Positions 20,106 through 31,122 of a stretch of DNA of 35,198 nt are shown here, piece by piece. The stretch lies in the IMG/VR virus record IMGVR_UViG_3300042879_003928, positions 1 through 35,198 of that record; one strand, given 5' to 3'. Source of the DNA: a virus. The position numbers and the translations under genes were made by a program. The notes below the pieces were generated by a model that was not told the origin of the DNA, searched no databases, and saw nothing but the letters and a program-made list of their open reading frames with translations. The stretch's first letter is position 1. Each line of letters starts with the position of its first letter.

Positions 20106-20166
20106 TCTGATTTTGTGGAGTGTGGCTTTTATTTGTGGCTGTACGGCTACATATCTAATGAATTAA
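20092..20166 (+). CDS. Membrane microprotein
   Basis: 24 aa, MRISDLILWSVAFICGCTAT...; a single short hydrophobic helix. GGAG lies 6 nt upstream within the previous gene. Very short, so tentative. Confidence 0.4.
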   Translation: MRISDLILWSVAFICGCTATYLMN

Positions 20167-20174
20167 AACTGTTC

Positions 20175-20262
20175 GATGTAACCCATTGCCACTAAACAAC
20201 TTAGGGCAAAATGGGCCGGCCGAATTTTTCCTAAGTCTTTATCTATCAACAACTTACGTCTA
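20175..20262. repeat. Family A repeat, copy 5
   Basis: Half-sites TGTAACCCATTG, TAAACAACTTAGGGCAA, CCTAAGTCTTTA and CAACTTACGTC; core GGGCCGGCCG. Confidence 0.82.
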
Positions 20263-20285
20263 AAGATTTTTTCTAATTTTTTTTC

Positions 20286-20313
20286 TTGACATTACCGATC
20301 TATAGAGTAGAAT
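20286..20313 (+). promoter_or_regulatory. Promoter with ACCGATC spacer
   Basis: TTGACA, 16 bp with ACCGATC, TAGAAT, behind a TAATTTTTTTTC T-tract. Confidence 0.82.
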
Positions 20314-20335
20314 CAAGAAAACGAAGGAGATAAAG

Positions 20336-20575
20336 ATGCTCGACGGATATAAGAAAACCTATACGTTTGGCAATGGTTACGGAGCCAGCGTTGTTTGCAA
20401 TCGGCACACCTATGGTGGCGACAGGGGGTTTTTTGAGGTTGCTGTGCTAGACATGGCCGGAGAGATTGTGTACGATACTTCTGTGACTAGCGATGTGATC
20501 GGATGGCTTGATTTTGATGGTGTTGCTAAGACGCTGCAAGCAATCCAGAATCTTCCAAAAAAGACTAATGTTTGA
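20336..20575 (+). CDS. Hypothetical early protein
   Basis: 79 aa, MLDGYKKTYTFGNGYGASVV...; beta-rich first half (SVVCNRHTYGGDRGFFEVAVLD) and a helical tail (GVAKTLQAIQNLPKK). This resembles small phage proteins of unknown function. GAAGGAGA ribosome-binding site. Confidence 0.7.
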   Translation: MLDGYKKTYTFGNGYGASVVCNRHTYGGDRGFFEVAVLDMAGEIVYDTSVTSDVIGWLDFDGVAKTLQAIQNLPKKTNV

Positions 20576-20576
20576 C

Positions 20577-20605
20577 TTGACAAGCGTCGATCTATAGTAT
20601 AGGAT
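20577..20605 (+). promoter_or_regulatory. Promoter with GTCGATC spacer
   Basis: TTGACA overlaps the end of the previous gene; 17 bp with GTCGATC; TAGGAT. Confidence 0.6.
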
Positions 20606-20612
20606 TTGAAGC

Positions 20613-20744
20613 ATGACTGAAATCGAGATGTGGGCTACGCTAGCCATCTGGTTTATTGGTGGATGGTTTGTAGGTTCTACCGTTGGTTGGTATGCCTTTC
20701 TTTACGCTTTTAAACTGTTTAACGATTATCTGCACAGGAACTAA
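20613..20744 (+). CDS. Membrane microprotein
   Basis: 43 aa, MTEIEMWATLAIWFIGGWFV...; one Trp-rich membrane helix with GG and GS small-residue spots, then a polar FKLFNDYLHRN tail. It starts about 8 nt after the -10 box, so the message is nearly leaderless and the ribosome-binding site is weak. Confidence 0.5.
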   Translation: MTEIEMWATLAIWFIGGWFVGSTVGWYAFLYAFKLFNDYLHRN

Positions 20745-20745
20745 A

Positions 20746-20829
20746 ATGGACGCTCTGATTGGTTTAAGTTTTGTTATTGCTTACGCTGGTTTTTTCTACT
20801 GCACTGTCTCTCTTTACGAAAAGGGTTGA
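20746..20829 (+). CDS. Membrane microprotein
   Basis: 27 aa, MDALIGLSFVIAYAGFFYCT..., one hydrophobic helix and a short charged end. It starts immediately after the preceding stop (TAAAATG). Confidence 0.42.
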   Translation: MDALIGLSFVIAYAGFFYCTVSLYEKG

Positions 20830-20831
20830 AT

Positions 20832-21140
20832 ATGACTCACGCCGAAGCTGTTACTATGGTTCGTGGTAAGACTAACCGGACTAGCCGTAAAATTGGTAAT
20901 AATACTCGTGGATATATCGAGTATGATGGTAGTGTTAGTATCGAATTGCATAGCACTAAGGTTGTGGTGTTGTATCCGAATGGCCTTGTGAAGTTGCAGA
21001 CTGGTGGATGGCAAACGGTTACTACAAAGGATCGTATCAACCAGTATAGCCCCGTAAGAGTTTACCAAAGAAATTACGAGTGGTTTGTCAAGTTGAATGG
21101 CAAAGAATATCCATTCATCGAAAATATGGTGGTATCATGA
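20832..21140 (+). CDS. Conserved-type phage hypothetical protein
   Basis: 102 aa. A basic N-terminus (TNRTSRKIGNNTRGYIEYDG) is followed by VVVLYPNGLVKLQTGGWQTVTTKDRINQY, a beta layout I recognise from other phage early proteins of unknown function. ATG chosen over an upstream TTG because AAGGG is at the right distance. The stop overlaps the next ATG (ATGA). Confidence 0.72.
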   Translation: MTHAEAVTMVRGKTNRTSRKIGNNTRGYIEYDGSVSIELHSTKVVVLYPNGLVKLQTGGWQTVTTKDRINQYSPVRVYQRNYEWFVKLNGKEYPFIENMVVS

Positions 21141-21334
21141 AAAATATCAACCAGATTATTAGATCATTGCAAAAGGCAGGATTTAAAGTAGAGTTTGGTA
21201 ATGGTAGTTTGGTAAAGCTATATCCTGTGGATTCGACTCAACCATTCTATTCTTTGCATATTGGTGAACGCGCTATTCATCCGTTGAAGAGATTTGCAAA
21301 GAAAAATTGGAATATCGAGTTGAATAAACTGTGA
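21137..21334 (+). CDS. HicA-like small protein
   Basis: 65 aa. INQIIRSLQKAGFKVEFGNGSLVKLYP, then FYSLHIGERAIHPLKRFAKKNW follows the alpha-beta-beta-beta-alpha layout of HicA-type dsRBD-like proteins, but the catalytic His of HicA toxins (GSHHIF) is not evident. There is no HicB partner nearby. It may be a phage-specific RNA-binding derivative. Paralog of the 15817 product. Confidence 0.6.
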   Translation: MKNINQIIRSLQKAGFKVEFGNGSLVKLYPVDSTQPFYSLHIGERAIHPLKRFAKKNWNIELNKL

Positions 21335-21335
21335 C

Positions 21336-21363
21336 TTGACAAGTAGTTTTTTTGTGGTATGCT
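21336..21363 (+). promoter_or_regulatory. Sigma-70 promoter
   Basis: TTGACA, 16 bp, TATGCT, immediately after the preceding stop; the spacer is T-rich and lacks CCGATA. Confidence 0.62.
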
Positions 21364-21398
21364 TGGTGTGTCTTCTAACTAATCGAAAGGAAAAGAAA

Positions 21399-21800
21399 AT
21401 GAACGAGTTTGTTATTGCTGGTATGGTTTGTGGTGTTGTTGCTGTTGTTGGTTTCATCCTGTTTCATGTGTGTCGTGGTACTGCCGATACTCTAAGTAAT
21501 GCTCGTATTGGTGGTGTGTATAACTTTCAGTACGAACAGCCAGTAACTGGTGATCCTGAGCGTTTTATGGCTAGGGTTATTAGTGTGCATCGTTTGAGTG
21601 CAGATAGTATTCAGAGACTGAATCGTACTAGCCGTTATCGTAAGCATGACAATCAGTTTGTGCGTACCACACACCTTGTTACTGCACAAACTCCGGATGG
21701 TAAGATTCGTAACTTCTATGCCGAACGTACTAGCAATGTTCGTCGCCCCCTCCTTGGTGGGGCGTTGTTCAAGAGCGGTTTGGCTGCGATGATTTTCTAA
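21399..21800 (+). CDS. Membrane-anchored DGFRSIY-family protein
   Basis: 133 aa. Residues 3-24 (EFVIAGMVCGVVAVVGFILF) are a membrane helix; the rest is a basic cytoplasmic-type domain with VTAQTPDGKIRNFYAERTSNV, related to the 15170 and 16580 proteins. GAAAGGAAAAG ribosome-binding site. A GCCCC/GGGGC hairpin lies in the 3' coding end. Function unknown. Confidence 0.65.
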   Translation: MNEFVIAGMVCGVVAVVGFILFHVCRGTADTLSNARIGGVYNFQYEQPVTGDPERFMARVISVHRLSADSIQRLNRTSRYRKHDNQFVRTTHLVTAQTPDGKIRNFYAERTSNVRRPLLGGALFKSGLAAMIF

Positions 21801-21813
21801 AAACCGGTCGCTC

Positions 21814-21905
21814 TTCCTAAGTTCTTATACCACAAGGACTTAGGGAGAGTGCGGCCGCAGCATTTTACTGTAAGTTGTTATCCCACAAGGACTTAGGACG
21901 ACTAA
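21814..21905. repeat. Family A repeat, copy 6
   Basis: Half-sites TCCTAAGTTCTTA, CAAGGACTTAGGGAGA, CTGTAAGTTGTTA and AAGGACTTAGGAC; core GCGGCCGC (a NotI-type palindrome). Confidence 0.82.
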
Positions 21906-21915
21906 AGTTTTGCTG

Positions 21916-21943
21916 TTGACAAGCCGATATTCTATAGTAGAAT
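21916..21943 (+). promoter_or_regulatory. Promoter with GCCGATA spacer
   Basis: TTGACA, 16 bp with GCCGATA, TAGAAT. Confidence 0.82.
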
Positions 21944-21962
21944 GATCGAAACGGAGAAAGAG

Positions 21963-22175
21963 ATGAAACCGTATTTGTGGGCTGTGTGGCAACATAATCG
22001 TTTGATCGGTTATGTTCAATCTTTTAGTGAATGGGATGCTATGAGATATGCTCATTCTAAATATGGTAATGGATTGTATGTAGAAAGATGCCTACATTGT
22101 GTACCATCTAATCTTACGGATTCGGCTAGAGTGGCTGTAGTCAGTCAGAATACGGAGAACAGAAATGCTTCATGA
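21963..22175 (+). CDS. Hypothetical early protein
   Basis: 70 aa, MKPYLWAVWQHNRLIGYVQS...; paralog of the 41-aa protein at 17697 through GLYVE. The C-terminal 20 residues (SNLTDSARVAVVSQNTE) are encoded by element B copy 3, so the natural end may once have been near residue 49. AACGGAGAAAGAG ribosome-binding site. Confidence 0.6.
   Translation: MKPYLWAVWQHNRLIGYVQSFSEWDAMRYAHSKYGNGLYVERCLHCVPSNLTDSARVAVVSQNTENRNAS
22108..22144 (+). repeat. Element B, copy 3 (inside a reading frame)
   Basis: 37 nt; stem AATCT/GGATT around TAC and the conserved GTAGTCAGTCAG end. It is followed by the ribosome-binding site of the next gene. Confidence 0.72.
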
Positions 22176-22362
22176 ATGTACCAAACAGTTGATTAGAAAT
22201 CAGGTTGCAGATTTTTCGGAAAGGCTGATTACGTGTGCTGTAGAAAGAGACAATGAGGGGTGTTTGCAGGAGATGACTTCGTTTTATGAATTCTTTTGTG
22301 GGGCCTTGACAGTGGCTCTCAGGGATGGTAGAAAGAGTGCTGAACGAGTAAGCGTCAACTGA
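22165..22362 (+). CDS. Hypothetical helical protein
   Basis: 65 aa, MLHECTKQLIRNQVADFSER...; all-helical, with no family recognised. ACGGAGAA, contributed just after element B copy 3, is the ribosome-binding site. Overlaps the previous reading frame by 11 nt. Confidence 0.6.
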   Translation: MLHECTKQLIRNQVADFSERLITCAVERDNEGCLQEMTSFYEFFCGALTVALRDGRKSAERVSVN

Positions 22363-22372
22363 AAGGGAAAAG

Positions 22373-22873
22373 ATGCCTAATTGGTGCCAGAATAATCTGA
22401 CGATTGAGCATGATGATCTGTCTAAGGTAATGGAATTTGTTCTTGCCTATAAGGAAGGCAAGGTTTGTGACCATTATCTGCCCGTGCCAAGAGATGAGAA
22501 GGGTGAGGTTATCACAGATGAATCTAGCCCACACTACTGGTATACTTGGTGCATAAATAACTGGGGTACTAAGTGGGATATTGGTAGTGATAATAATGAG
22601 GCCCATGGATTGAAACCTACCGTTGTGGGTAATCAGGCCACTATGGCTTTTGATAGTGCGTGGAGTCCTCCGGTTGGACTCTACGAAAAGTTGCAAGAAC
22701 TTGGATTTAGTGTAGAGGCTACGTATTTTGAGCCGGGTATGGCTTACTGTGGTATCTGGCATGATGGAGACGATCATTATGTTGAGTATACTCATAAGGA
22801 TATGATTCCTAAGCGTATTTGGGATGACTATAATTTGGCTGACTTTTTTGTTGATGAGGAGGAGACTGTATGA
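22373..22873 (+). CDS. YubB/Api92-like ferredoxin-fold protein
   Basis: 166 aa starting MPNWCQNNLTIEHDD, the signature of the DUF1281/YubB ferredoxin-like family common on plasmids and phages. The NNWGTKWD motif and a late YFEPGMAYCGIWHDG segment support it. No enzymatic role is established for the family as far as I know. GGGAAAAG ribosome-binding site. Its TGA overlaps the next ATG. Confidence 0.8.
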   Translation: MPNWCQNNLTIEHDDLSKVMEFVLAYKEGKVCDHYLPVPRDEKGEVITDESSPHYWYTWCINNWGTKWDIGSDNNEAHGLKPTVVGNQATMAFDSAWSPPVGLYEKLQELGFSVEATYFEPGMAYCGIWHDGDDHYVEYTHKDMIPKRIWDDYNLADFFVDEEETV

Positions 22874-23043
22874 GACCTTGTCCATGTGGCTCTACTAAAA
22901 ATAGTTGGTGGGAAAGCGATGCTAGGGGTATTCCGCTGGCTAGGGTGTGTGTGGAGTGCAAGGAAAAGAAGTTGGGTAAGTTTAGACCGGAAGTGCTTGC
23001 CAACTCAAACTACTACGCAGACGAGCCTATCGAAGCCGAATAG
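22870..23043 (+). CDS. Zinc-ribbon microprotein
   Basis: 57 aa. CPCGS at the N-terminus and CVECKEKKL in the middle form a likely CxC...CxxC zinc site; WWESDARGIPLARVCVECK is a pattern seen in phage proteins. Coupled to the previous gene by ATGA. Function unknown. Confidence 0.7.
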   Translation: MRPCPCGSTKNSWWESDARGIPLARVCVECKEKKLGKFRPEVLANSNYYADEPIEAE

Positions 23044-23050
23044 GTGAATC

Positions 23051-23136
23051 GCTCTAAGTTCTTTGCCCAAGAGGACTTAGGGCGAGTTCGGCCGGCCGGG
23101 TTCGTCGTAAGTTCTTACGGCTAAACACTTTATGAC
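23051..23136. repeat. Family A repeat, copy 7
   Basis: Half-sites CTCTAAGTTCTTT, GAGGACTTAGGGCGA, TCGTCGTAAGTTCTTA and AACACTTTATGAC; core CGGCCGGCCGGG. Confidence 0.85.
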
Positions 23137-23190
23137 TTGTTTCATTTTCTGCAACAACTGGCACACGCTTTGCTCTCTAAAGATTCCCTC

Positions 23191-23218
23191 TTGACTTGCC
23201 GATAAACTATGCTAGGAT
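23191..23218 (+). promoter_or_regulatory. Promoter with GCCGATA spacer
   Basis: TTGACT, 16 bp with GCCGATA, TAGGAT. Confidence 0.75.
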
Positions 23219-23240
23219 AGCAGCACACAGGAGAGAAACG

Positions 23241-23951
23241 ATGAAAACAGCAAATGGTAATGATAAGTTGGGTAAGGAAAACTGCATTGTGGTGAGTCGC
23301 CCCGTTGGTGATACTTGCCCGCCCGATTGTGATTTTCTCGGAAACGGCTGCTATGCCGAGGACTTGGAAAATATCTATCCCGGTGTTCGTCCTGCTGGTA
23401 TGCAGAATCTTATCACAGAAAAGAATCGTATTCGCTCTATGCTTGTGGATGCGGTCAAGAAAAACAAAGATGTCCGCTGGCATGAGCGTGGCGACTTTTT
23501 CAAGGATGGTAGTCTCGACACCGAGTATGTAGATAACGTACTGTGGGCGTGTGAGAGTATTCTTGCTAGTGGTGGTAGTCTGCCGACTATGTGGGCTTAT
23601 ACCCATATTTATGATAGTCGTTTATCTACCGAACTTGGCAAGTATATAAATATGTATGCTAGTATTCATGACGGCGAAGATATGCGACAGGCTAAGGCTG
23701 CTGGTTTCAAACTGTTCGCGTGGTGTGATAGTGATACTAAGATTGCACCTAAGCGTCCGCGTGGTAAGGCCAAGGCCGACGCATGGCGAGCATCTTTGCC
23801 GAAACTGGTTGTGCTGGAAGGTGAGAAGTTTATCACTTGCCCGGAAATCCGTCGTGGTCGTGGTGTTGTGACTTGCACACAAACGAAGAATAGCGTACAC
23901 TGTGACTTGTGCCCGCGTGGTTTGGCTAACGTGTTGTTTCCATCACACTGA
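23241..23951 (+). CDS. Cysteine-rich phage protein
   Basis: 236 aa, among the larger early proteins. CPPDCDFLGNGCYAE (residues 26-40) and a C-terminal cluster (ITCPEIRRGRGVVTC, CDLCPRG) could bind a metal or an Fe-S cluster. The layout recalls phage proteins loosely linked to the Gp37/Gp68 type (GCYAE), but I cannot confirm it. ACAGGAGAGAAACG puts GGAG at a good distance. Function unknown. Confidence 0.65.
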   Translation: MKTANGNDKLGKENCIVVSRPVGDTCPPDCDFLGNGCYAEDLENIYPGVRPAGMQNLITEKNRIRSMLVDAVKKNKDVRWHERGDFFKDGSLDTEYVDNVLWACESILASGGSLPTMWAYTHIYDSRLSTELGKYINMYASIHDGEDMRQAKAAGFKLFAWCDSDTKIAPKRPRGKAKADAWRASLPKLVVLEGEKFITCPEIRRGRGVVTCTQTKNSVHCDLCPRGLANVLFPSH

Positions 23952-23958
23952 GGTATAT

Positions 23959-24132
23959 ATGGAAAACTGGATTTTTGTGAACGACCATAAGATTAGACAC
24001 CGTTGGGAATGCCCAGAGTGTGATGGGCATTCGTATGTACAACCGTGGTATTATTCAGAGATGGGCGAGCCTATGTGTACTGATTGTGATAGTGATATGG
24101 AATATGTAAGAACGGAGTATAATAATGGCTAG
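23959..24132 (+). CDS. Zinc-ribbon microprotein
   Basis: 57 aa. Two CxxC knuckles (CPEC and CTDC) about 22 residues apart make a zinc ribbon: RWECPECDGHSYVQPWYYSE and GEPMCTDCDSDMEY. GAGG is upstream. It overlaps the kinase-like gene by 8 nt. Confidence 0.7.
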   Translation: MENWIFVNDHKIRHRWECPECDGHSYVQPWYYSEMGEPMCTDCDSDMEYVRTEYNNG

Positions 24133-24700
24133 TGTTTATGTTGGACAATATGATGATGCTGGAAGCAAAAATGCTTTTTACATTATTCCACAACGTAGGT
24201 TTGGTCGAAAGCGTATCGGATTCAAAGAGTTTGAAAATAAAAATGAAGCAGACTTTGCGTATAGGATTCAGAGTATTTTAGCAGATAAGGATTTGGCCCC
24301 AAAGGTTTATGGTCAAGTAGGACGAATCCAAAAGTCTGGTTATGATGGTGAGTTGACTGGCTATGGATACCTTACAGAAATTGCCCGACCTATGGCATAC
24401 TGTAATGATGAATATTGTGATGGTGAGTGTTATGATAGTGATTGTAGAAATAGTAGTATCATAGCAGATATTGTGGGTATGTTAGATTTTTATGGATTGG
24501 CTTATAGTGACCATCATCGTGCGAACTTTGGGTATGTTCGACGTAATCGACAGTGGATTCCCGTTGTAATAGATGTTGGTATTGAAAGTTTTGATGGTTG
24601 GGATGAGAGTATTTATGGAGAGTTTCAGTCTGACGACGAAGAAAACTATGGATCGTGCAACTGTGTATGTTGTCGCCAATATGCTAATCCCGAAAGGTAA
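24125..24700 (+). CDS. Kinase-fold-like protein
   Basis: 191 aa. A protein-kinase-like order of motifs is visible: GFKEF with K34 (beta-3 lysine), E41 in the following helix, LAPKVYG, a hinge-like GYLTEIARP (80-89), SDHHRANFGYV (D129, N134; catalytic-loop pattern D-x4-N) and VVIDVG with D150 in place of DFG. The lobe after the DFG site is nearly absent, and a Cys-rich tail (SCNCVCC) ends it. It may be a minimal kinase or a pseudokinase; the call is from motif order only. Confidence 0.55.
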   Translation: MASVYVGQYDDAGSKNAFYIIPQRRFGRKRIGFKEFENKNEADFAYRIQSILADKDLAPKVYGQVGRIQKSGYDGELTGYGYLTEIARPMAYCNDEYCDGECYDSDCRNSSIIADIVGMLDFYGLAYSDHHRANFGYVRRNRQWIPVVIDVGIESFDGWDESIYGEFQSDDEENYGSCNCVCCRQYANPER

Positions 24701-24703
24701 ATC

Positions 24704-24934
24704 ATGGCTAAATACTACATTAAGTGTGGAACATTGGAACTAATCTACTCATGCAACAAGGCTCCACGATATGCTGCTATGGATGCTATATGGGAATTAA
24801 ATGATAATGATGTGCTAGACGAGCATATCTATTTGGATGAGCGAAGCTATAAAGACTATACTAATGCTGATGGTTTGACTACCGTTTTACACACTTCGCA
24901 TATCTTGAAGGATGCAGGCTGGAGTTTGGAGTAG
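24704..24934 (+). CDS. Hypothetical early protein
   Basis: 76 aa, MAKYYIKCGTLELIYSCNKA...; the pattern of an N-terminal strand pair, a helix (APRYAAMDAIWELN) and a C-terminal strand fits a small alpha/beta fold. GAAAGG lies upstream. Last gene of its operon, ending right at repeat A copy 8. Confidence 0.65.
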   Translation: MAKYYIKCGTLELIYSCNKAPRYAAMDAIWELNDNDVLDEHIYLDERSYKDYTNADGLTTVLHTSHILKDAGWSLE

Positions 24935-25020
24935 ACCTAAAGCCTTGATCGTAAAGGACTTACGACGAGGCTGGCCGCAGGATGTTGACGTAAGTGCTTG
25001 TGTGGTATAGGGTTGCATCA
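24935..25020. repeat. Family A repeat, copy 8
   Basis: Half-sites CCTAAAGCCTTG, AAAGGACTTACGACGA, GACGTAAGTGCTTG and a degenerate fourth site; core CTGGCCGCAG. Confidence 0.8.
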
Positions 25021-25054
25021 ACAGAATTTTTTCCAGAATTCCTATAGAAGCCTC

Positions 25055-25083
25055 TTGACAAGTGACGATAATGCTTGTAGAAT
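25055..25083 (+). promoter_or_regulatory. Promoter driving a candidate structured RNA
   Basis: TTGACA, 17 bp with GACGATA, TAGAAT. The region downstream lacks a convincing gene for more than 500 bases, so it probably makes RNA. Confidence 0.8.
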
Positions 25084-25089
25084 ACAAGA

Positions 25090-25525
25090 GTAAGACAAAA
25101 CAAAAGTGATGGCGAGTTGGATAAACGTCGATAAAAATAGCCAACTCATAAAACGCAACCCTAATGGTGAGAGTGCTTATTTAGCCAAGCCACACTTTTA
25201 CAAACATTCGTGGGTCCATGCTCGGGACTAGATTGGGATAAGCCATTACGATAAACCTACCGGCTGTAATGCAGCGGAAAGGTTGCCAGCGGGCTTATAC
25301 GTTGGATAGTAGTGCCAATTTATGGGGGATAGCGTCCTCACCACGACCATACAATCCGGAATTATCCTTCATCGGGTAATAGAGTGAATTAACACCGCAA
25401 CATTACGCTTGCGTTCTATCTTTCATCGGGTAGAATCACTGAAATAACAGCCGGATACCGAACAACCAGTAACCGCTCCCAAGAGCCAGACCAAAGTGAC
25501 TGTTGCTAGCAGACTATCACTTTGC
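25090..25525 (+). ncRNA. Candidate structured non-coding RNA (~435 nt)
   Basis: No long reading frame and no ribosome-binding site. Visible helices include AAAAGTG/CACTTTT enclosing GAGTTGG/CCAACTC, GTCC/GGAC, GATAAGCC/GGCTTAT, and two related hairpins with TTCATCGG on the 3' side of the loop: ATTATC/GGTAAT and TTCTATC/GGTAGAA. The lower stems of those two differ but still pair. CAAAGTGA/TCACTTTG closes the 3' end. A 40-codon frame from 25109 (MASWINVDKNSQ...) exists but lacks a good start signal. The RNA matches no class I recognise (not tmRNA or RNase P by eye). Confidence 0.55.
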
Positions 25526-25602
25526 AGGGAGGATTTCCGTGGACGGTTTTTATAGAATCGGGGCGTAAAAGATTCGCTGGTTATAATACAAAAGGAGAAG
25601 AT

Positions 25603-25779
25603 ATGAATAAAGAAGAATCAGACAGAAACGCAGCGATAGTGAAGGTTCTCAGGGTTCTTAAAAATCCCATGCTGATTATGAGTCCTGCTAAAAAAGAGGC
25701 ATTGACTTTAGCAGAAGAGCATGGTATAACGGTATCAGACTTGATTAGTGAATACGAAAAGATAGCAATGAGGGTATAA
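25603..25779 (+). CDS. Hypothetical early protein
   Basis: 58 aa, MNKEESDRNAAIVKVLRVLK...; helical, with no family recognised. AAAGGAGAAG is a strong ribosome-binding site. It begins a six-gene cluster coupled by TAATG and ATGA overlaps and could be transcribed by read-through from the structured RNA or from a weak TATAGAAT-like signal near 25552. Confidence 0.65.
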   Translation: MNKEESDRNAAIVKVLRVLKNPMLIMSPAKKEALTLAEEHGITVSDLISEYEKIAMRV

Positions 25780-25958
25780 TGGCTAAAACCGTAGACGTTG
25801 AACTGACTAAGGTGGAAATCGAACTGCTACATGGTCTGGTTCAAGACCATATTGATAGTGGTAGTTATTATGGTAATAAGAACTGGTTTCTGGTTATGCA
25901 GGCCAAGGTGTTTGAAAAGTTGGCCGATGCCTATTCTGAACTGGAGAATGAAGTATGA
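25779..25958 (+). CDS. Hypothetical helical protein
   Basis: 59 aa, MAKTVDVELTKVEIELLHGL...; helix, YYGNKNWF turn, helix. Linked to its neighbours by TAATG at the start and ATGA at the end. No function recognised. Confidence 0.65.
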   Translation: MAKTVDVELTKVEIELLHGLVQDHIDSGSYYGNKNWFLVMQAKVFEKLADAYSELENEV

Positions 25959-26167
25959 AAGCATACGCTATTATTTGTGAGTATGGGGCTGCTAGCATCC
26001 ATGAATCTATTGAGATGATTTGTAAGACTGAAAAGATTGCACGATCATATTATAATGATGCAGAGTTTTACGGTAGGCCGATTGATATTCGTGAAATAGA
26101 GATTGTGACTAAGCCATATCAAAAGTCTCCCATATACTTGAAAAGCATCAAAAGGAAAAAGAAATGA
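25955..26167 (+). CDS. Hypothetical alpha/beta protein
   Basis: 70 aa, MKAYAIICEYGAASIHESIE...; a strand, a helix (ICKTEKIARSYYND) and a strand (DIREIEIV), ending in a basic SIKRKKK tail that might touch nucleic acid. The stop overlaps the next ATG. Confidence 0.65.
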   Translation: MKAYAIICEYGAASIHESIEMICKTEKIARSYYNDAEFYGRPIDIREIEIVTKPYQKSPIYLKSIKRKKK

Positions 26168-26388
26168 CCGTTAACGAACTTATTGAGCAGTTGAAGAACT
26201 ATCCGGGCGATATGCGGGTTCTTACCCTTGGTTATGAGGGTGGGTATAATGATGTCAATCTAAAGACAGAGGAGATTGTATTCAATTTCTCCAAGAATGA
26301 TGCTTGGTATTATGGGCCGCATGAGTGTGTGAAGTTTACTGATGGTGATACTGGTACACAATGCTTGATTGTTACGAGGGAAAAATAA
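26164..26388 (+). CDS. Conserved-type phage hypothetical protein
   Basis: 74 aa, MTVNELIEQLKNYPGDMRVL then GYEGGYNDVNLKTEEIVF. The leading helix plus YPGD.RV pattern is a familiar one among phage and plasmid proteins of unknown function. Coupled on both sides (ATGA, TAATG). Confidence 0.7.
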   Translation: MTVNELIEQLKNYPGDMRVLTLGYEGGYNDVNLKTEEIVFNFSKNDAWYYGPHECVKFTDGDTGTQCLIVTREK

Positions 26389-26705
26389 TGGAATGGAATA
26401 ATTCTCATAAGAATCCGCCAGAGAGTGGACAGAAGATTTATTACTTTGGACCTAATATTGGTATAGGTATTGGTCATTATTCTTATCAAGAGAGTCGTGG
26501 ATTCTTTCCTTACTATTACGATGAAATAGGCGTAAAGATTTACGAAAGAAAAAGAGTAGAACTCTGTCCCCATATTTTTACTAATGAAAATTTTGGGGTC
26601 GTAGATGCTTGTGATGCTCCTTACTGGCTTCCTTACGACGAGGAACGAGCAAAGAGTTGGTGTCCTATTATTCCTGAAAAGTATACGAAAGATTTGTACG
26701 ATTGA
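26388..26705 (+). CDS. Hypothetical aromatic-rich protein
   Basis: 105 aa, MEWNNSHKNPPESGQKIYYF...; the start resembles DUF551-like openings (W...P.SG..Y...) and the end WLPYDEERAKSWCPIIPE is Trp/Pro-rich. The start was set by the TAATG overlap, not the longer upstream frame. Confidence 0.62.
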   Translation: MEWNNSHKNPPESGQKIYYFGPNIGIGIGHYSYQESRGFFPYYYDEIGVKIYERKRVELCPHIFTNENFGVVDACDAPYWLPYDEERAKSWCPIIPEKYTKDLYD

Positions 26706-26707
26706 AT

Positions 26708-26839
26708 ATGGAACTTAAAACACTTAGTGATATTTGTCCATGTGGGGCGTGTGAAGTTTTGGTGTGGAAATATGACAATAATGGCTTAATCTGGAACTTT
26801 TGCCAGCAATGCTATTGGTGGTATGTCGCAAATGATTGA
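26708..26839 (+). CDS. Zinc-ribbon microprotein
   Basis: 43 aa with CPCGAC and CQQC forming a compact zinc site; Trp-rich between and after (VWKYDNNGLIWNF, CYWWY). It starts 2 nt after the previous stop and shares the CPCG opening with the 22870 protein. Confidence 0.6.
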   Translation: MELKTLSDICPCGACEVLVWKYDNNGLIWNFCQQCYWWYVAND

Positions 26840-26841
26840 CA

Positions 26842-26909
26842 CATAAAGACTTATGGCAAACCGGGCCGGCCGAATTCGTCGTAAGTCCTTGGATATAAGC
26901 CACTTAGGA
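26842..26909. repeat. Family A repeat, copy 9 (first half-site lost)
   Basis: Half-sites TAAAGACTTATGGCAA, TCGTCGTAAGTCCTTG and CCACTTAGGA; core CGGGCCGGCCGAA. The expected first half-site is absent. Confidence 0.82.
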
Positions 26910-26927
26910 TTTTTTCAAGATTCTCTC

Positions 26928-26955
26928 TTGACTGTACCGATACTATATGTATAAT
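26928..26955 (+). promoter_or_regulatory. Promoter of tRNA-Leu
   Basis: TTGACT, 16 bp with ACCGATA, TATAAT; the tRNA starts 9 bp later, so the transcript begins close to its mature 5' end. Confidence 0.82.
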
Positions 26956-26963
26956 TGAAGCAT

Positions 26964-27036
26964 GGGAGCGTAGACCAACGGCAGAGTCAAAGGACTTAAA
27001 ATCCTTCAAGTGTGGGTTCGAATCCCACCGCTCCTA
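26964..27036 (+). tRNA. tRNA with UAA anticodon (Leu), class I shape
   Basis: 73 nt: acceptor GGGAGCG/CGCTCCT, anticodon stem AAGGA/TCCTT with loop CTTAAAA (anticodon TAA, reads UUA), T-arm GTGGG TTCGAAT CCCAC, discriminator A. The variable loop is only five bases, whereas bacterial leucine tRNAs normally have a long variable arm. No CCA is encoded. Confidence 0.8.
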
Positions 27037-27042
27037 CTAGCA

Positions 27043-27180
27043 AACAGATGCGGGCCGCTGGCAGAATGATATCAAAGAAGCCACGGTTAAATGCAAGGCC
27101 GAGTATGGCATAACCCGACTGTTTGTATTTGCTAATCCTACGGATTCGCTGCCGTTGCTGATAGTCAGTCAGAAGTAGGG
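27043..27180 (+). pseudogene. Start-less reading-frame remnant after tRNA-Leu
   Basis: 45 codons open from a TAG 3 nt after the tRNA to a TAG at 27178: QTDAGRWQNDIKEATVKCKA..., reading protein-like but without ATG/GTG/TTG or ribosome-binding site. Its end is encoded by element B copy 4. It may be a gene 3' remnant left by tRNA acquisition, or chance. Confidence 0.3.
27132..27168 (+). repeat. Element B, copy 4
   Basis: 37 nt; AATCC/GGATT stem with loop TAC, then CTGATAGTCAGTCAG (CTGA/TCAG hairpin). A promoter starts 15 nt later. Confidence 0.75.
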
Positions 27181-27183
27181 GTC

Positions 27184-27212
27184 TTGACAAGAGTGACTCG
27201 ATAAAGTATATT
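27184..27212 (+). promoter_or_regulatory. Promoter with CTCGATA spacer
   Basis: TTGACA, 17 bp with CTCGATA, TATATT. Confidence 0.72.
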
Positions 27213-27232
27213 GTGCAGACAGGAGAACTTTT

Positions 27233-27475
27233 ATGGTTGCTTTTGCTGATAGAGATCGACAGTTGGTGGCCTCTTGTGTTCATTGTGGGGCCGAATATAT
27301 TTTGTGGGTAAATGAACAGGATTTTCTTGACTGGACTAGTGACTCAGGGTATATTCAAGATAAGTTGCCCTATCTTAGTGCTGATGAGCGTGAGTTGTTA
27401 ATTAGTGGTACTTGTGGTAAGTGCTGGAAAGATATGTTTGGGGGCATGGATGATGAGGAAGATGAAACAGAATAA
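27233..27475 (+). CDS. Zinc-ribbon small protein
   Basis: 80 aa. CVHCG (residues 15-19) and CGKC (61-64) form a split zinc site; the middle is acidic and the tail (MDDEEDETE) very acidic. ACAGGAGAA ribosome-binding site. The tail overlaps the start of the next gene. Confidence 0.7.
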   Translation: MVAFADRDRQLVASCVHCGAEYILWVNEQDFLDWTSDSGYIQDKLPYLSADERELLISGTCGKCWKDMFGGMDDEEDETE

Positions 27476-27875
27476 GTTACACGCCGAAGTTCGATTCCAT
27501 CTGTCTAGTGGCAAAAACTATATGCACTGGCAGATAAAGATTATGCAAGGTAGCAAAAAAGTAGATGTATACTACTACAATCCGACCGAATACCAATTGG
27601 AGATGGTTGGATGCAAGCTGGTGAATCGCCCCAATAAGGCCAAGCAGGTATTTGAGGCTGGTGTGCATGATGTTAGTGGCTGGGTAAAGTGTGAAGAGGT
27701 TCGTCCTGTTCGACAAATGCCAGTTGACAATCTTGAGAAGTTGTATTATAATCCCATTCGTGACCCGTACTGGCGACGAGAAAGCGATAGTAATGAGTTT
27801 ATTTGGGATAATAGCGAATACGCTACGCTAGTTACTAGTGGCAAACAAGTTTACGTTTTGGAGGAAAGAACATGA
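27462..27875 (+). CDS. Hypothetical beta-rich protein
   Basis: 137 aa, MKQNKLHAEVRFHLSSGKNY...; N-terminal beta region (HWQIKIMQGSKKVDVYYYNP) is seen in some phage proteins of unknown function. Start chosen at the ATG with GAGGAAG upstream. The stop overlaps the next gene (ATGA). Confidence 0.7.
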   Translation: MKQNKLHAEVRFHLSSGKNYMHWQIKIMQGSKKVDVYYYNPTEYQLEMVGCKLVNRPNKAKQVFEAGVHDVSGWVKCEEVRPVRQMPVDNLEKLYYNPIRDPYWRRESDSNEFIWDNSEYATLVTSGKQVYVLEERT

Positions 27876-28231
27876 TTAACATTGGCATGACGATTCGTGA
27901 GATGGTTGCTCTGGCTTCTAACCCCAGTTGCACTGGTGATCTGTATGAGAGGATCATCAAGGCCATTGAAGAGGCTACCGGCAATACCATGATGATGGTG
28001 GCTTGTAATGGTGTGAGATATGATGGTCAGTTTTGGGACCACAAGATAGCAGCCATCAAAAGCTTGAGACTCTCTACGGGCTGGGGTCTTCGAGAGGCGA
28101 AGGATTGGGTTGAAAACTGTATGCATAATGGTAGGACGTATTATACTCCTACTATGACTGCCGAGAAGGCTCGTGAATTGAGCGAGTCTTTGGAGAAGCT
28201 CGGTTGTTCTTGCTGGACAACCCCTGCTTGA
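27872..28231 (+). CDS. Ribosomal protein L7/L12 C-terminal-domain-like protein
   Basis: 119 aa. Residues 58-119 follow the bL12 C-terminal domain: KIAAIKSLRLSTGWGLREAK matches the family motif K(I/V)xVIKxVRxxTGLGLKEAK, then DWVE and a C-terminal helix TAEKARELSESLEKLGC like xxEAExxKxxLExAGA. In ribosomes this domain recruits GTPase factors. The N-terminal 57 residues are not the dimerisation domain of bL12. GAGGAAAG ribosome-binding site. It might compete for or recruit translation factors (inference). Confidence 0.75.
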   Translation: MINIGMTIREMVALASNPSCTGDLYERIIKAIEEATGNTMMMVACNGVRYDGQFWDHKIAAIKSLRLSTGWGLREAKDWVENCMHNGRTYYTPTMTAEKARELSESLEKLGCSCWTTPA

Positions 28232-28313
28232 CATAAAGCCTTGACCCTAAACAACTTAGGGCAAGGCCAGCCGCAACATTTTGACGTAAGTGCTTATGTG
28301 ATAACACTTTGCA
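28231..28313. repeat. Family A repeat, copy 10
   Basis: Half-sites CATAAAGCCTTG, TAAACAACTTAGGGCAA, GACGTAAGTGCTTA and ACACTTTGCAAC; core GGCCAGCCGC. Confidence 0.82.
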
Positions 28314-28353
28314 ACAAATCAAAGAAAAACGAATTTTCATTCAAGAGAAGGAC

Positions 28354-28382
28354 TTGACAGTGACGATACACTAGGGTAGAAT
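28354..28382 (+). promoter_or_regulatory. Promoter with GACGATA spacer
   Basis: TTGACA, 17 bp with GTGACGATA, TAGAAT. A decayed relative lies at 32911. Confidence 0.8.
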
Positions 28383-28412
28383 GATAGAAACGCAACGCAA
28401 GTGGCTGCCACG

Positions 28413-28523
28413 ATGCCAACGCTAGAAACCTTCATGGCAGACTTGACAAGCGGTAATCAGTTATGTATACTGGTTATGTTGGTTCCAGTTTGGTTTACTT
28501 TACTACTTGGAGGTTTACTATGA
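28413..28523 (+). CDS. Possible membrane microprotein
   Basis: 36 aa, MPTLETFMADLTSGNQLCIL... with a hydrophobic second half. No ribosome-binding site, and a second promoter lies inside it, so it is tentative; its TGA overlaps the next ATG. Confidence 0.35.
   Translation: MPTLETFMADLTSGNQLCILVMLVPVWFTLLLGGLL
28443..28471 (+). promoter_or_regulatory. Second promoter before 28520 gene
   Basis: TTGACA, 17 bp, TATACT; the spacer lacks CCGATA. Confidence 0.65.
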
Positions 28524-28777
28524 AGGCTTTTAGTTTCAACGTGACGATTGCTGCCGATGGTCTGGATACGGATGTTATTGAGGATACGCTTCGTCAGGCT
28601 CTTACTGACGGTCTGCCCGAGGAGACTCTTGCTCTCGTCAAGGCCGATGGTGTGAAGGAGTATAGCGAGCAGGGTTGGAAGGTTGCTCGTAATCGTAAGT
28701 TCGGTATCGGTGTCAAGGAGGCTGGCGACGGCCACAAGGCTAAGTCATCCAAGGTGGCTGCGGAGGCAACCGCCTGA
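28520..28777 (+). CDS. Hypothetical early protein
   Basis: 85 aa, MKAFSFNVTIAADGLDTDVI...; a strand-helix layout (DTDVIEDTLRQALTDGLPEE) with an Ala/Lys-rich tail. GC-rich with strong codon bias; two promoters and GGAGG 6 nt upstream suggest high expression. Function unknown. Confidence 0.7.
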   Translation: MKAFSFNVTIAADGLDTDVIEDTLRQALTDGLPEETLALVKADGVKEYSEQGWKVARNRKFGIGVKEAGDGHKAKSSKVAAEATA

Positions 28778-28779
28778 CA

Positions 28780-28807
28780 TTGACAAACTGGACTGTGCCA
28801 GTATAAA
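28780..28807 (+). promoter_or_regulatory. Promoter of second candidate RNA / tRNA-Arg
   Basis: TTGACA, 16 bp, TATAAA, directly after the previous stop; no protein gene follows before tRNA-Arg. Confidence 0.72.
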
Positions 28808-28813
28808 TAGCAT

Positions 28814-29018
28814 TTAGGCACAGTGCGGCGGGGTAAAACCCGCGTATGAGGCTCGTTGCAGTGCCCAAGGTGCAACCTAGAGAAGGTCTAACCAACCAGA
28901 TAAAACGGGTGGTTCCGTTGAAGTTATCGACCCTCTAGCGTATAATTATGATAGGATGGTAAGACGATAACACCATCAACCTGCATAGCCTCTATGGGAC
29001 GCCGTGGGGGCTTGCAGT
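28814..29018 (+). ncRNA. Candidate structured RNA upstream of tRNA-Arg
   Basis: No convincing reading frame. A chain of short helices is visible: GCGGG/CCCGC, GTTGCA/TGCAAC, TAGA/TCTA, AACCA/TGGTT (or the competing AACGG/CCGTT), GATGGT/ACCATC and CTGC/GCAG enclosing ATAG/CTAT. It probably shares a transcript with tRNA-Arg and may be released by tRNA 5' processing. No known RNA class recognised. Confidence 0.45.
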
Positions 29019-29024
29019 ATTGAC

Positions 29025-29096
29025 GGCCCCGTAGTTCAATGGATAGAATAAGTGACTTCTAATCTCTAGATGCAGGTTCGATTCCTGCCGGGGCTA
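29025..29096 (+). tRNA. tRNA-Arg (UCU)
   Basis: Acceptor GGCCCCG/CGGGGCT, loop CTTCTAA (anticodon TCT, reads AGA), T-arm GCAGG TTCGATT CCTGC, discriminator A. The anticodon stem has one T-T mismatch (AGTGA/TCTCT). Confidence 0.88.
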
Positions 29097-29099
29097 TTT

Positions 29100-29180
29100 A
29101 TGAAAGATGACGCAAAAACTACGGAAGATTTTTTGAAGGCTTGTGAGCTGCTCCTAAACTCTTTGAGAATAAAGACTTAG
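29100..29180 (+). CDS. Possible microprotein ending in repeat A
   Basis: 26 aa, MKDDAKTTEDFLKACELLLN...; helical. No ribosome-binding site, since it starts 4 nt after tRNA-Arg. Its last codons (AAG ACT TAG) belong to repeat A copy 11. Tentative. Confidence 0.3.
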   Translation: MKDDAKTTEDFLKACELLLNSLRIKT

Positions 29181-29233
29181 GAGAAAGACGGCCGGCCGGA
29201 TTCGTCGTAAGTCCTTAGCCGTAAAGACTTTAG
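29152..29233. repeat. Family A repeat, copy 11
   Basis: Half-sites CCTAAACTCTTT, TAAAGACTTAGGAGAA, TCGTCGTAAGTCCTTA and AAGACTTTAGAA; core CGGCCGGCCGGA. Confidence 0.85.
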
Positions 29234-29252
29234 AATTTTCTAAAGTTGAGTG

Positions 29253-29281
29253 TTGACAGAGGCCGATACGTAGAGTATGAT
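29253..29281 (+). promoter_or_regulatory. Promoter with GCCGATA spacer
   Basis: TTGACA, 17 bp with GGCCGATA, TATGAT. Confidence 0.78.
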
Positions 29282-29309
29282 GATACCACGCAGAAGGAGA
29301 GGCGAACGG

Positions 29310-29675
29310 ATGATTCAATGGATTGGAGTGATTATTGCTCTGTTGGGTTTTGCTTATAATGGTGTAAAAGATTATCAAAAAGGTGATATAAAATTACCAA
29401 AACTGCCACAAAAACAAGTATTGACAAAACCAGTTTATCCGATACAATACTGTCTAATGGCTTACGATCCTAATGTTGAGAAGGTTTTTTACTTACACGA
29501 AAATGGACAATGGCATGATTACGCTCCACAACAACGACGATATGCAGCGACCACGACGCAACATCATCAAGGTCAAGAAGGTTATGCCGTGGGAGGTTCG
29601 ACAGGGACACAAGGAGCATCGGGATACGGTTATGGACAACAGACCCAAGCGCCTTCGCACACGCCGAGATATTGA
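29310..29675 (+). CDS. Membrane-anchored Gly/Gln-rich protein
   Basis: 121 aa. Residues 1-19 (MIQWIGVIIALLGFAYNGV) are a membrane helix or uncleaved signal. Then comes a short domain with VYPIQYCLMAYDPNVEKVFY and a low-complexity end rich in Gly, Gln and Tyr. That end lies where a second gene overlaps in another frame, which may explain its composition. GGAGAGG upstream sets the start. Confidence 0.65.
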   Translation: MIQWIGVIIALLGFAYNGVKDYQKGDIKLPKLPQKQVLTKPVYPIQYCLMAYDPNVEKVFYLHENGQWHDYAPQQRRYAATTTQHHQGQEGYAVGGSTGTQGASGYGYGQQTQAPSHTPRY

Positions 29676-29703
29676 GCGATCATGGCAAAAGGAGTATGAA
29701 TAA
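29503..29703 (+). CDS. Out-of-frame overlapping basic protein
   Basis: Up to 66 aa (starts possible at 29503, 29515 or 29542). The end KKVMPWEVRQGHKEHRDTVM then DNRPKRLRTRRDIERSWQKE is well-formed and resembles a phage protein pattern (PWEVRQGH..HR). It overlaps 29310-29675 in the +1 frame for 170 nt or more, and its TAA overlaps the next ATG (TAATG), fitting translational coupling. The start site is uncertain. Confidence 0.55.
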   Translation: MDNGMITLHNNDDMQRPRRNIIKVKKVMPWEVRQGHKEHRDTVMDNRPKRLRTRRDIERSWQKEYE

Positions 29704-29879
29704 TGTATCACTATATTACAGTGCAAATTGTGATGCGTGATTGCGAATCTAAAACAGACGCTAAAAGAAAGTGTGTACAACTTCTACCATGTCATCCAGA
29801 TGAAAATACTAGGCATATGGAATCTTGGGAAATTATAAAAGTGGTAGAGGCTGGACAAGACCTAGGATCGAGAGTATGA
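29703..29879 (+). CDS. Hypothetical early protein
   Basis: 58 aa, MYHYITVQIVMRDCESKTDA...; strand, helix, then WEIIKVVEA. Starts in a TAATG overlap with the preceding gene; last protein gene before the tRNA cluster. Confidence 0.6.
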   Translation: MYHYITVQIVMRDCESKTDAKRKCVQLLPCHPDENTRHMESWEIIKVVEAGQDLGSRV

Positions 29880-29948
29880 TATGTAAGCGTCCTGTCTACC
29901 CATGTGGATAGAGGGATCTTGACTCGTCAGAGATGGCGAGTCTTGCAA

Positions 29949-30020
29949 GCCGACGTAACTCAGTGGTAGAGTAGTTGTTTTGTAAACAACCTGTCGGGGG
30001 TTCGATTCCCTCTGTCGGCT
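29949..30020 (+). tRNA. tRNA-Thr (UGU)
   Basis: Acceptor GCCGACG/TGTCGGC, anticodon stem GTTGT/ACAAC with loop TTTGTAA (anticodon TGT, reads ACA), T-arm GGGGG TTCGATT CCCTC. No clear promoter of its own. Confidence 0.9.
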
Positions 30021-30021
30021 C

Positions 30022-30092
30022 TCCGGGGTAGTGTAACGGTAGCACTAGAGATTTTGGTTCTCTTTGTCTGGGTTCGAATCCTAGCCCCGGAA
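30022..30092 (+). tRNA. tRNA-Gln (UUG)
   Basis: Acceptor TCCGGGG/CCCCGGA, anticodon stem AGAGA/TCTCT with loop TTTTGGT (anticodon TTG, reads CAA), discriminator A. It begins 1 nt after tRNA-Thr. Confidence 0.9.
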
Positions 30093-30102
30093 TTGTAAAT
30101 GA

Positions 30103-30174
30103 TGTCCGATAGCTCAACGGTAGAGTAGGCGGCTGTTAACCGCTTGGTTCTAGGTTCGAATCCTAGTCGGACAG
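30103..30174 (+). tRNA. tRNA-Asn (GUU)
   Basis: Acceptor TGTCCGA/TCGGACA, stem GGCGG/CCGCT with loop CTGTTAA (anticodon GTT), T-arm CTAGG TTCGAAT CCTAG, discriminator G as usual for Asn. Confidence 0.9.
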
Positions 30175-30177
30175 TTT

Positions 30178-30264
30178 GGAATCTTGGCCGAGTGGTTTAA
30201 GGCAGCGGTTTACTAAACCGCCGAGGGTTAAAATCCTCCGGGGGTTCGAATCCCTCAGATTCCG
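30178..30264 (+). tRNA. tRNA-Ser with ACU anticodon
   Basis: 87 nt class II tRNA with a long variable arm; acceptor GGAATCT/AGATTCC, stem GCGGT/ACCGC, loop TTACTAA. The anticodon reads ACT rather than the usual GCT, so it would decode AGU; discriminator G. Confidence 0.85.
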
Positions 30265-30277
30265 CTAAAGGTTGGGG

Positions 30278-30306
30278 TTGACAACTGCCGATAACGAATG
30301 TAGAAT
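30278..30306 (+). promoter_or_regulatory. Promoter of tRNA-Ile
   Basis: TTGACA, 17 bp with GCCGATA, TAGAAT, 9 bp before the tRNA. Confidence 0.85.
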
Positions 30307-30315
30307 AGAACACAC

Positions 30316-30391
30316 GGGGCGTAAGGTAAGCCGGTTGCATCCGACACTCTTATAAGGTGTTCATAGGTACGTTCGACTCGTACACGCCCTA
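30316..30391 (+). tRNA. tRNA-Ile (UAU)
   Basis: Acceptor GGGGCGT/ACGCCCT, stem ACACT/GGTGT with loop CTTATAA (anticodon TAT, reads AUA), T-arm GTACG TTCGACT CGTAC, discriminator A. The D-arm is somewhat irregular. Confidence 0.82.
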
Positions 30392-30431
30392 CTTTTATGC
30401 TTCGGAGGCTGACGTTTGAGTTACGGTGGCT

Positions 30432-30504
30432 GGCCCCATCGTCTAACGGTTTAGGACCTTGGATTTTCGTTCCAAGTATCGGGGTTCGAATCCCCGTGGG
30501 GTCA
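30432..30504 (+). tRNA. tRNA-Glu (UUC)
   Basis: Acceptor GGCCCCA/TGGGGTC, stem TTGGA/TCCAA with loop TTTTCGT (anticodon TTC, reads GAA), T-arm CGGGG TTCGAAT CCCCG, discriminator A. Confidence 0.88.
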
Positions 30505-30505
30505 T

Positions 30506-30534
30506 TTGACAAATCGATAACGGTGTGGTAGACT
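30506..30534 (+). promoter_or_regulatory. Promoter with ATCGATA spacer
   Basis: TTGACA, 17 bp with ATCGATA, TAGACT, starting 1 bp after tRNA-Glu. Confidence 0.75.
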
Positions 30535-30558
30535 CTTGGAATAAGAAAGGAATTATAG

Positions 30559-30723
30559 ATGAAAACCGTAAAGGTTTATGATATTCTAACTTATGATGGA
30601 CAGACCCTAGCCGATATCCAATTAGAAATGCACGACGAATATGAATGGATCGACATTTTTTACAAGTTGGATGAGCTGACAGGACAGGACATTGACAGTT
30701 ATAGTTCTCATGAGGTAGAATGA
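30559..30723 (+). CDS. Hypothetical acidic microprotein
   Basis: 54 aa, MKTVKVYDILTYDGQTLADI...; acidic, strand-helix layout (YEWIDIFYKLDELTGQDIDS). AGAAAGGAA lies upstream. A protein gene inserted in the tRNA cluster; tRNA-Lys follows 6 nt after its stop. Confidence 0.6.
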   Translation: MKTVKVYDILTYDGQTLADIQLEMHDEYEWIDIFYKLDELTGQDIDSYSSHEVE

Positions 30724-31120: not shown

Positions 31121-31122
31121 AT

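What the first reader, a model, noticed from the sequence alone, without database searches (positions are those of the whole stretch)
25084..25602. Promoter-driven ~435-nt structured RNA of unknown class
A strong promoter leads into more than 500 bases without a supported gene. Several long-range helices are visible. Two hairpins share TTCATCGG, but their lower stems differ in sequence while keeping pairing (ATTATC/GGTAAT, TTCTATC/GGTAGAA), an internal covariation signal. A closing CAAAGTGA/TCACTTTG hairpin marks the end. It does not look like tmRNA, RNase P or a group I intron by eye.
Basis: partly seen in the sequence, partly recalled or inferred. Interest (0 to 1): 0.78.

Follow-up and report, generated by a model that had tools for sequence, protein, structure and literature searches.

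The report
Modular structured RNA of large phages
A strong promoter in a large, uncultured bacterial virus reads out a chain of separately folding RNA units that match no known RNA family, whose folds are preserved in about 85 related virus fragments, and whose side units are swapped between relatives like beads on a string.

Summary
The RNA is real, but it is not one 435-nt fold. Behind a strong promoter (25055-25083) lie four separately folding modules: D (25103-25198), A (25208-25346, with a pseudoknot), B (25355-25455) and C (25464-25582), joined by A-rich linkers (consensus AATACAA).

A and C form a core found once per genome, side by side, in about 85 IMG/VR contigs (some up to 244 kb). 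No homologue was found in 50,697 phage records. In GTDB genomes it appears only on one 4.6-kb lake MAG contig.

Covariation is strong. A: 93% of cells paired, 24 of 50 pairs changed on both sides, pseudoknot 99.7% paired. C: 93%, 19 of 32. B: 100%, 5 of 31. An unbiased scan recovers the main helices and finds no convincing A-C helix. A covariance model found divergent A units exactly upstream of C in four loci outside its training set. No Rfam family matches.

About 35 segment families sit before, between or after A and C, including weak tRNA-like units. Two viruses with identical terminases differ by gain or loss of D.

Most likely: an early, trans-acting modular noncoding RNA with a conserved A-C core and exchangeable accessories, comparable to but not a member of GOLLD/ROOL. 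Function is inferred, not shown.

The parts
25055..25083 (+). Sigma-70-type promoter TTGACA-17-TAGAAT; start of transcription expected near 25090 (inferred)
   Evidence: promoter-like site upstream in 65 of 67 distinct homologous loci
25103..25198 (+). Module D: accessory RNA unit closed by AAAGTG/CACTTT, with inner GAGTTGG/CCAACTC; absent from the otherwise near-identical relative G001
   Evidence: MFE z = -2.5; one homologue in L165 placed between A and C, with a changed closing helix ATGAGT/ACTCAT; absent in L116 = G001
25208..25346 (+). Module A: core RNA unit with helices P1, P2, P3, P5, P6, P7, P8 and a pseudoknot
   Evidence: 57-sequence covariation; CM R1 hit 25197-25351, 161.6 bits; unbiased stack scan
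25238..25243 (+). Module A pseudoknot, 5' strand ATAAGC, pairs with 25293-25298
   Evidence: Pseudoknot helix 99.7% paired, 3 of 6 pairs changed on both sides
25293..25298 (+). Module A pseudoknot, 3' strand GCTTAT, inside the loop of P7
25347..25354 (+). Linker CCATACAA between A and B (consensus in relatives CCAATACAA)
   Evidence: Upstream sequence of B and C in relatives: AATACAA in 6 of 7 and 28 of 40 distinct copies
25355..25455 (+). Module B: TCCGG/CCGGA closing helix, two UUCAUCGG hairpins and a variable middle hairpin
   Evidence: 9 copies; 8 distinct rows, 100% of cells paired, 5 of 31 pairs changed on both sides; MFE z = -3.3
25456..25463 (+). Linker TACCGAAC(AA) between B and C
25464..25582 (+). 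Module C: core RNA unit closed by AACCAG/CTGGTT, with P2, P3, GAATC/GATTC hairpin; the optional hairpin of relatives is missing here
   Evidence: 47-sequence covariation; CM R2 hit 25462-25584, 117.9 bits
25492..25524 (+).
   Evidence: All 8 pairs changed on both sides among relatives, 88% of cells paired
25504..25511 (+). Palindrome TGCTAGCA in the P3 loop region of C, a possible self-pairing (kissing) site
   Evidence: Palindrome in 21 of 25 distinct hairpins, three unrelated kinds; type-level shuffle p = 0.018
25583..25597 (+). Linker ATAATACAA followed by ribosome-binding site AAGGAG of the next ORF; relatives often have a T-run here instead
   Evidence: 17-18 of 63 distinct tails T-run, about 15 linker plus RBS plus ORF, at least 13 another RNA module
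25603..25779 (+). 58-aa ORF downstream of the RNA, no family match; other genes follow in most relatives

Best explanation
This is a modular noncoding RNA that acts in trans, made early in infection from a strong host-type promoter. Its conserved core is A plus C; before, between and after them sit exchangeable domains (here D and B). Each module folds on its own behind its own closing helix, and A-rich linkers keep neighbours apart. I propose that the core gives a stable RNA platform that engages a host component, most plausibly of the translation or RNA-handling machinery, perhaps as an oligomer, and that the swappable modules serve as interchangeable ligands or decoys for host factors, including RNA-targeting defences. 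Shown: structure, modularity, conservation, linkage of A with C, conserved promoter. Inferred: trans action, early expression, target, oligomer, decoy role.
For: Covariation in A, C and B and an unbiased scan that finds the same helices and no convincing A-C helix. A and C are neighbours, nearly always once per genome, in large contigs, and the model finds a divergent A exactly upstream of C in four loci outside its training set. Conserved promoter at distances that fit zero or one extra module. In 17-18 of 63 distinct loci a T-run directly follows C, nearly always with a new promoter after it, and the downstream genes differ between relatives, which favours a product working on its own. 112 distinct accessory segments in 35 families, exchanged between relatives, some of them weak tRNA-like units; module G sits behind tRNA-Leu here and in front of A elsewhere. 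D is present or absent between two phages with identical terminases. The window also has nine tRNAs and an L7/L12-like protein, a setting of interference with translation.
Against: No expression data. In the window C is not followed by a T-run but by a linker, a ribosome-binding site and an ORF, so here the RNA may be the front of a longer mRNA. A single-copy, well-kept core is not what a pure decoy would predict. Nothing here tests any binding partner. Some of the 35 segment families may be coding sequence or fragments.
Confidence: 0.45

Rival explanations
1. A self-assembling ornate RNA particle like GOLLD or ROOL: many copies of the A-C RNA join through loop-loop contacts (such as the palindromic P3 loop of C) into a closed or chain-like RNA complex that may hold tRNAs or ribosome parts.
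For: Palindromes of three unrelated kinds in the P3 loop region of C, 21 of 25 distinct hairpins, type-level shuffle p = 0.018. Large phage, near a tRNA cluster, tRNA-like units in the same arrays; GOLLD has a conserved 3' region and sometimes tRNAs in its linker (PMC12286853).
Against: The palindrome statistic is modest and four hairpins lack one. Modules look independent. A 125-150-nt module plan is unlike the single large folds of GOLLD and ROOL.
Confidence: 0.2
2. A cis-acting 5' leader or riboswitch that controls the ORFs behind it (here the 58-aa ORF at 25603).
For: In the window and in about 15 of 63 distinct loci C leads directly to a ribosome-binding site and ORF.
Against: The following genes differ between relatives; other loci have a T-run plus new promoter, or another RNA module, after C. 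No alternative anti-terminator or RBS-masking pairing was seen.
Confidence: 0.15
3. One or more modules are catalytic RNAs that cut the array into units; A, with its nested pseudoknot, would be the candidate.
For: A has a compact pseudoknot core with many invariant bases, and Pistol ribozymes are present in these phages.
Against: No match to any Rfam ribozyme; no conserved cleavage site could be defined; linkers vary.
Confidence: 0.08
4. Chance folding or a decaying relic without function.
For: Folding energy of the whole stretch is only borderline, and modules come and go between relatives.
Against: Covariation far beyond shuffles and slid controls, conserved promoter, constant A-C linkage.
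Confidence: 0.02

Closest known systems
GOLLD RNA
   Same: Large structured RNA of phages and prophages, often near tRNA islands, with a conserved part and a variable part; tRNAs sometimes inside its variable linker; function unknown (PMC12286853, read).
   Different: No sequence or structure match in Rfam. Here the RNA is a chain of separate 100-180-nt modules with exchangeable units; GOLLD is one fold, often over 800 nt.
ROOL RNA
   Same: Phage-borne large RNA near tRNA islands with pseudoknots and no known protein partner (PMC12286853).
   Different: No Rfam match; ROOL is a single fold of about 600-660 nt; modular swapping is not described for it in the paper read.
Phage tRNA arrays and stable RNAs such as those of T4 (from memory)
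   Same: Several small stable RNAs in one phage transcript, some of them tRNAs or tRNA-like.
   Different: A, B, C and D are not tRNAs; most units have no known family.
Type III toxin-antitoxin RNAs such as ToxI (from memory)
   Same: Tandem folded RNA units separated by short A-rich linkers, some with pseudoknots.
   Different: Units here are about four times longer and mostly unlike each other, and the ORFs that follow differ between relatives, so no constant toxin gene is visible.

Membership tests
GOLLD / ROOL ornate RNAs | Match to the Rfam covariance model | tested here: not met
   No Rfam match at gathering scores or at E up to 5; relatives matched only tRNA and Pistol
GOLLD / ROOL ornate RNAs | Encoded in phages near tRNA genes | tested here: met
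   Phage record with nine tRNAs at 26964-30802; tRNAs near A-C in relatives
GOLLD / ROOL ornate RNAs | Symmetric RNA-only oligomer (cage) | not testable with these tools
   Palindromic loops are only a hint
tmRNA, RNase P RNA, group I or II intron, 6S RNA, HEARO, phi29 pRNA | Match to the Rfam covariance model | tested here: not met
   all 4227 Rfam families
Cis-regulatory leader / riboswitch | Constant class of downstream gene | tested here: not met
   Varied ORFs, T-runs or other RNA modules follow C
Independent noncoding RNA | Conserved promoter and covarying structure without a conserved ORF | tested here: met
Independent noncoding RNA | Discrete transcript with defined ends | not testable with these tools
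   No RNA-seq data available; T-runs after C in 17-18 of 63 distinct loci are indirect support
Type III toxin-antitoxin RNA | Tandem repeats of one short pseudoknot unit next to a ToxN-like gene | tested here: not met
   Units are 96-180 nt and unlike each other; downstream ORFs differ between relatives and the window's own downstream ORF has no family match

The most novel reading that the evidence does not exclude
Large phages carry a combinatorial RNA cassette system: one conserved two-domain RNA core (A-C), present once per genome, onto which dozens of unrelated, separately folding RNA units, some tRNA-like, are added and exchanged as interchangeable RNA effectors or decoys against host factors, in the way that accessory genes are exchanged at the protein level.
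Probability: 0.3. Interest if true: 0.9.

Novelty: new variant of a known kind. Interest (0 to 1): 0.74.

Why it matters
It adds at least three covariation-supported RNA families (A with a pseudoknot, B, C) that Rfam 15 lacks, in a widespread lineage of large uncultured phages with no close cultured relative found. The cassette-like swapping of folded RNA units around a conserved core is unusual. It makes the open question of what large phage RNAs such as GOLLD and ROOL do more testable, because nature supplies many versions with single modules gained or lost.

Tried and rejected
Folding energy alone: borderline, not used as proof. Rfam matches at loose threshold (mir-4003, GlsR14): far below their gathering scores, chance. 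DNA search against 50,697 phage records with the whole region and with A and C apart: only short matches with weak E-values, rejected as chance. A first pattern for A was mistyped and its empty result means nothing; the corrected pattern found 55 stretches. The 16-nt hairpin word of B alone brought in 15 contigs, most of which do not hold B by nhmmer. GTDB pattern scans: none for A; three for C, of which one (L225, 4.6-kb lake MAG contig) also carries A and is probably a mis-binned phage piece; the other two look like chance. AATACAA is not enriched in the window as a whole, so the linker claim rests on its place before modules in relatives. A search for helices between A and C found nothing convincing. 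RNAalifold alone missed the pseudoknot and much of A. An intron was considered and rejected: the RNA lies between genes behind its own promoter and matches no intron model. Literature searches found no description of these RNAs in the papers held; subscription papers were not covered.

Full report
What the window is. The window is a 35,198-base IMG/VR virus record carrying terminase, portal and structural proteins, a cluster of nine tRNAs and a Pistol ribozyme. A terminase search found 80 kept loci with 75-100% identity in IMG/VR. The nearest relatives in 50,697 phage records are only about 25% identical, so the lineage has no close relative in that collection.

Check of the observation. The promoter is at 25055-25083. 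The region has no ORF longer than 41 aa inside it. The 519-nt stretch folds only slightly better than shuffles (z = -1.8; 6 of 100), so energy is not proof. The reverse strand shows nothing. Rfam gives nothing, at curated or loose thresholds.

Homologues. A pattern from the two UUCAUCGG hairpins found four other contigs, and whole-record searches found matches in 15 of 30 related contigs. Patterns for the two most conserved parts then brought in 55 and 52 stretches. Iterated nhmmer over 182 sequences found module A 93 times in 87 sequences, C 86 times in 85, and B 9 times. D has one relative, in L165.

Modules. Comparing loci shows that the RNA is a chain. In the window the order is D-A-B-C. 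Relative G001, with an identical terminase (L005), has A-B-C without D and with an extra hairpin in C. Others have A-C directly, A-A-B-C, or A followed by another unit and then C. Clustering of what lies before, between and after A and C gave 112 distinct segments in 35 families. A few of these may be coding sequence or fragments, so the number of true RNA modules is somewhat lower. Module G, found in 57 loci, sits between promoter and A in about ten relatives; in the window it sits behind tRNA-Leu at about 27040-27126.

Structure of A. Proposed helices: P1 25208-25213 with 25341-25346, P2, P3, P5, P6, P7, P8 and a pseudoknot 25238-25243 with 25293-25298 inside the P7 loop. On 57 sequences 93.3% of cells pair, 24 of 50 pairs have changes on both sides (shuffled mean 16.0, none of 500 reach 24), and sliding the partner strand by 1-3 columns drops pairing to 32-42%. 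The pseudoknot is 99.7% paired with 3 of 6 pairs changed on both sides. P6 is less regular and absent in L225.

Structure of C. P1 25464-25469 with 25577-25582, P2, P3 (25492-25499 with 25517-25524), an optional hairpin missing in the window copy, and a GAATC/GATTC hairpin. On 47 sequences 93.3% of cells pair and 19 of 32 pairs have changes on both sides. B: 100% paired, 5 of 31 pairs with changes on both sides, four of them in the middle hairpin. An alternative helix in B (columns 29-33 with 82-86) fits equally well.

Unbiased check. A scan of all antiparallel stacks with covariation, without my structure, returned five A helices including the pseudoknot and the main C helices. Between A and C it returned only one 3-bp stack, which I judge to be noise. 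The modules therefore look independent.

Prediction test. Covariance models built from A and C find one copy each in the window. In 35 large contigs they find A in 28 and C in 27, next to each other and nearly always once per genome. Four loci that had C but no A by sequence search have a divergent A exactly upstream of C by the model (E 2e-11 to 3e-10). Seven contigs have no A; some are fragments, so absence is uncertain.

Transcription. Of 67 distinct loci 65 have a promoter-like site within 330 nt upstream (42% of random positions do). Distances from promoter to the first core module peak at 16 nt (A first) and about 100 nt (one extra module). After C, 17-18 of 63 distinct sequences start with a T-run, almost all followed by the next promoter. 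About 15 lead through a linker to a ribosome-binding site and ORF, and at least 13 lead to another RNA module. The window belongs to the ORF class. Together with the varied downstream genes, this favours a product that works on its own, but a leader role is not excluded.

tRNA-like units and setting. Weak tRNA matches (32-44 bits, against about 51-76 for ordinary tRNAs of these phages) lie beside A or C in several relatives, one with a four-base anticodon by ARAGORN. The window also encodes an L7/L12-like protein. These point, weakly, to translation and RNA-targeting defences as the arena.

Possible self-association. The P3 loop region of C holds a palindrome of 6-8 nt in 21 of 25 distinct hairpins, of three unrelated kinds, the short form as a 9-nt loop AG-TCATGA-A. 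On loop types the shuffle probability is 0.018. This is a lead, not a demonstration.

Comparison with the known. The closest in kind are GOLLD and ROOL, phage RNAs near tRNA islands that form RNA cages and whose function is unknown (PMC12286853). This RNA is not a member by covariance model. It differs by its plan of separate exchangeable modules. I found no description of it in the papers held.

Verdict. A real, new, modular structured RNA of a lineage of large phages. The identity (structured, modular, conserved, promoter-driven) I hold at about 0.9. The mechanism (trans-acting platform with exchangeable ligands or decoys) is inference at about 0.45.

Noticed in passing
24934-25031 and 12 more places starting at 16083, 17507, 18417, 19329, 20179, 21818, 23055, 26830, 28234, 29155, 31589, 32809: An imperfectly palindromic repeat of about 80 bp, 13 copies in the window and over 1,100 strand-wise hits in 100 related loci. 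All nine copies right of 20 kb lie 12-58 nt before a promoter-like site, as if each copy separates two transcription units (terminator, insulator or regulator). One copy sits just before the promoter of this RNA, the next at 26830.
   Followed up: partly
27040-27126: Module G, another structured-looking RNA unit without Rfam match, directly behind tRNA-Leu; in about ten relatives it lies between the promoter and module A. RNAalifold gives few pairs with two-sided changes.
   Followed up: partly
28787-28849: Pistol ribozyme (52.9 bits), also present in several relatives.
   Followed up: no
27872-28231: 119-aa protein with a ribosomal protein L7/L12 C-terminal domain (E 4e-8, above the Pfam cut-off).
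   Followed up: no
31043-31120: tRNA-like stretch with acceptor-like ends (AACGGACG / CGTCCGTT) and a T-arm but no match by ARAGORN or Rfam; possibly a degenerate tRNA or a tRNA-like unit.
   Followed up: no
20000-35198: Unusually dense near-consensus sigma-70 promoters (66 sites on both strands against 36 expected, the best ones mostly on the plus strand), suggesting many short early transcription units.
   Followed up: no
L082:6894-6968 and weak tRNA-like units next to A or C in L084, L144, L160, L176, L193: tRNA-like units with low Rfam scores, one with a four-base anticodon by ARAGORN.
   Followed up: partly
L225 (RFNS01000242.1, 4.6 kb, titled Alphaproteobacteria MAG, Lanier): The only GTDB contig with both A and C; probably a phage contig binned with a bacterium. 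Its A lacks P6.
   Followed up: partly
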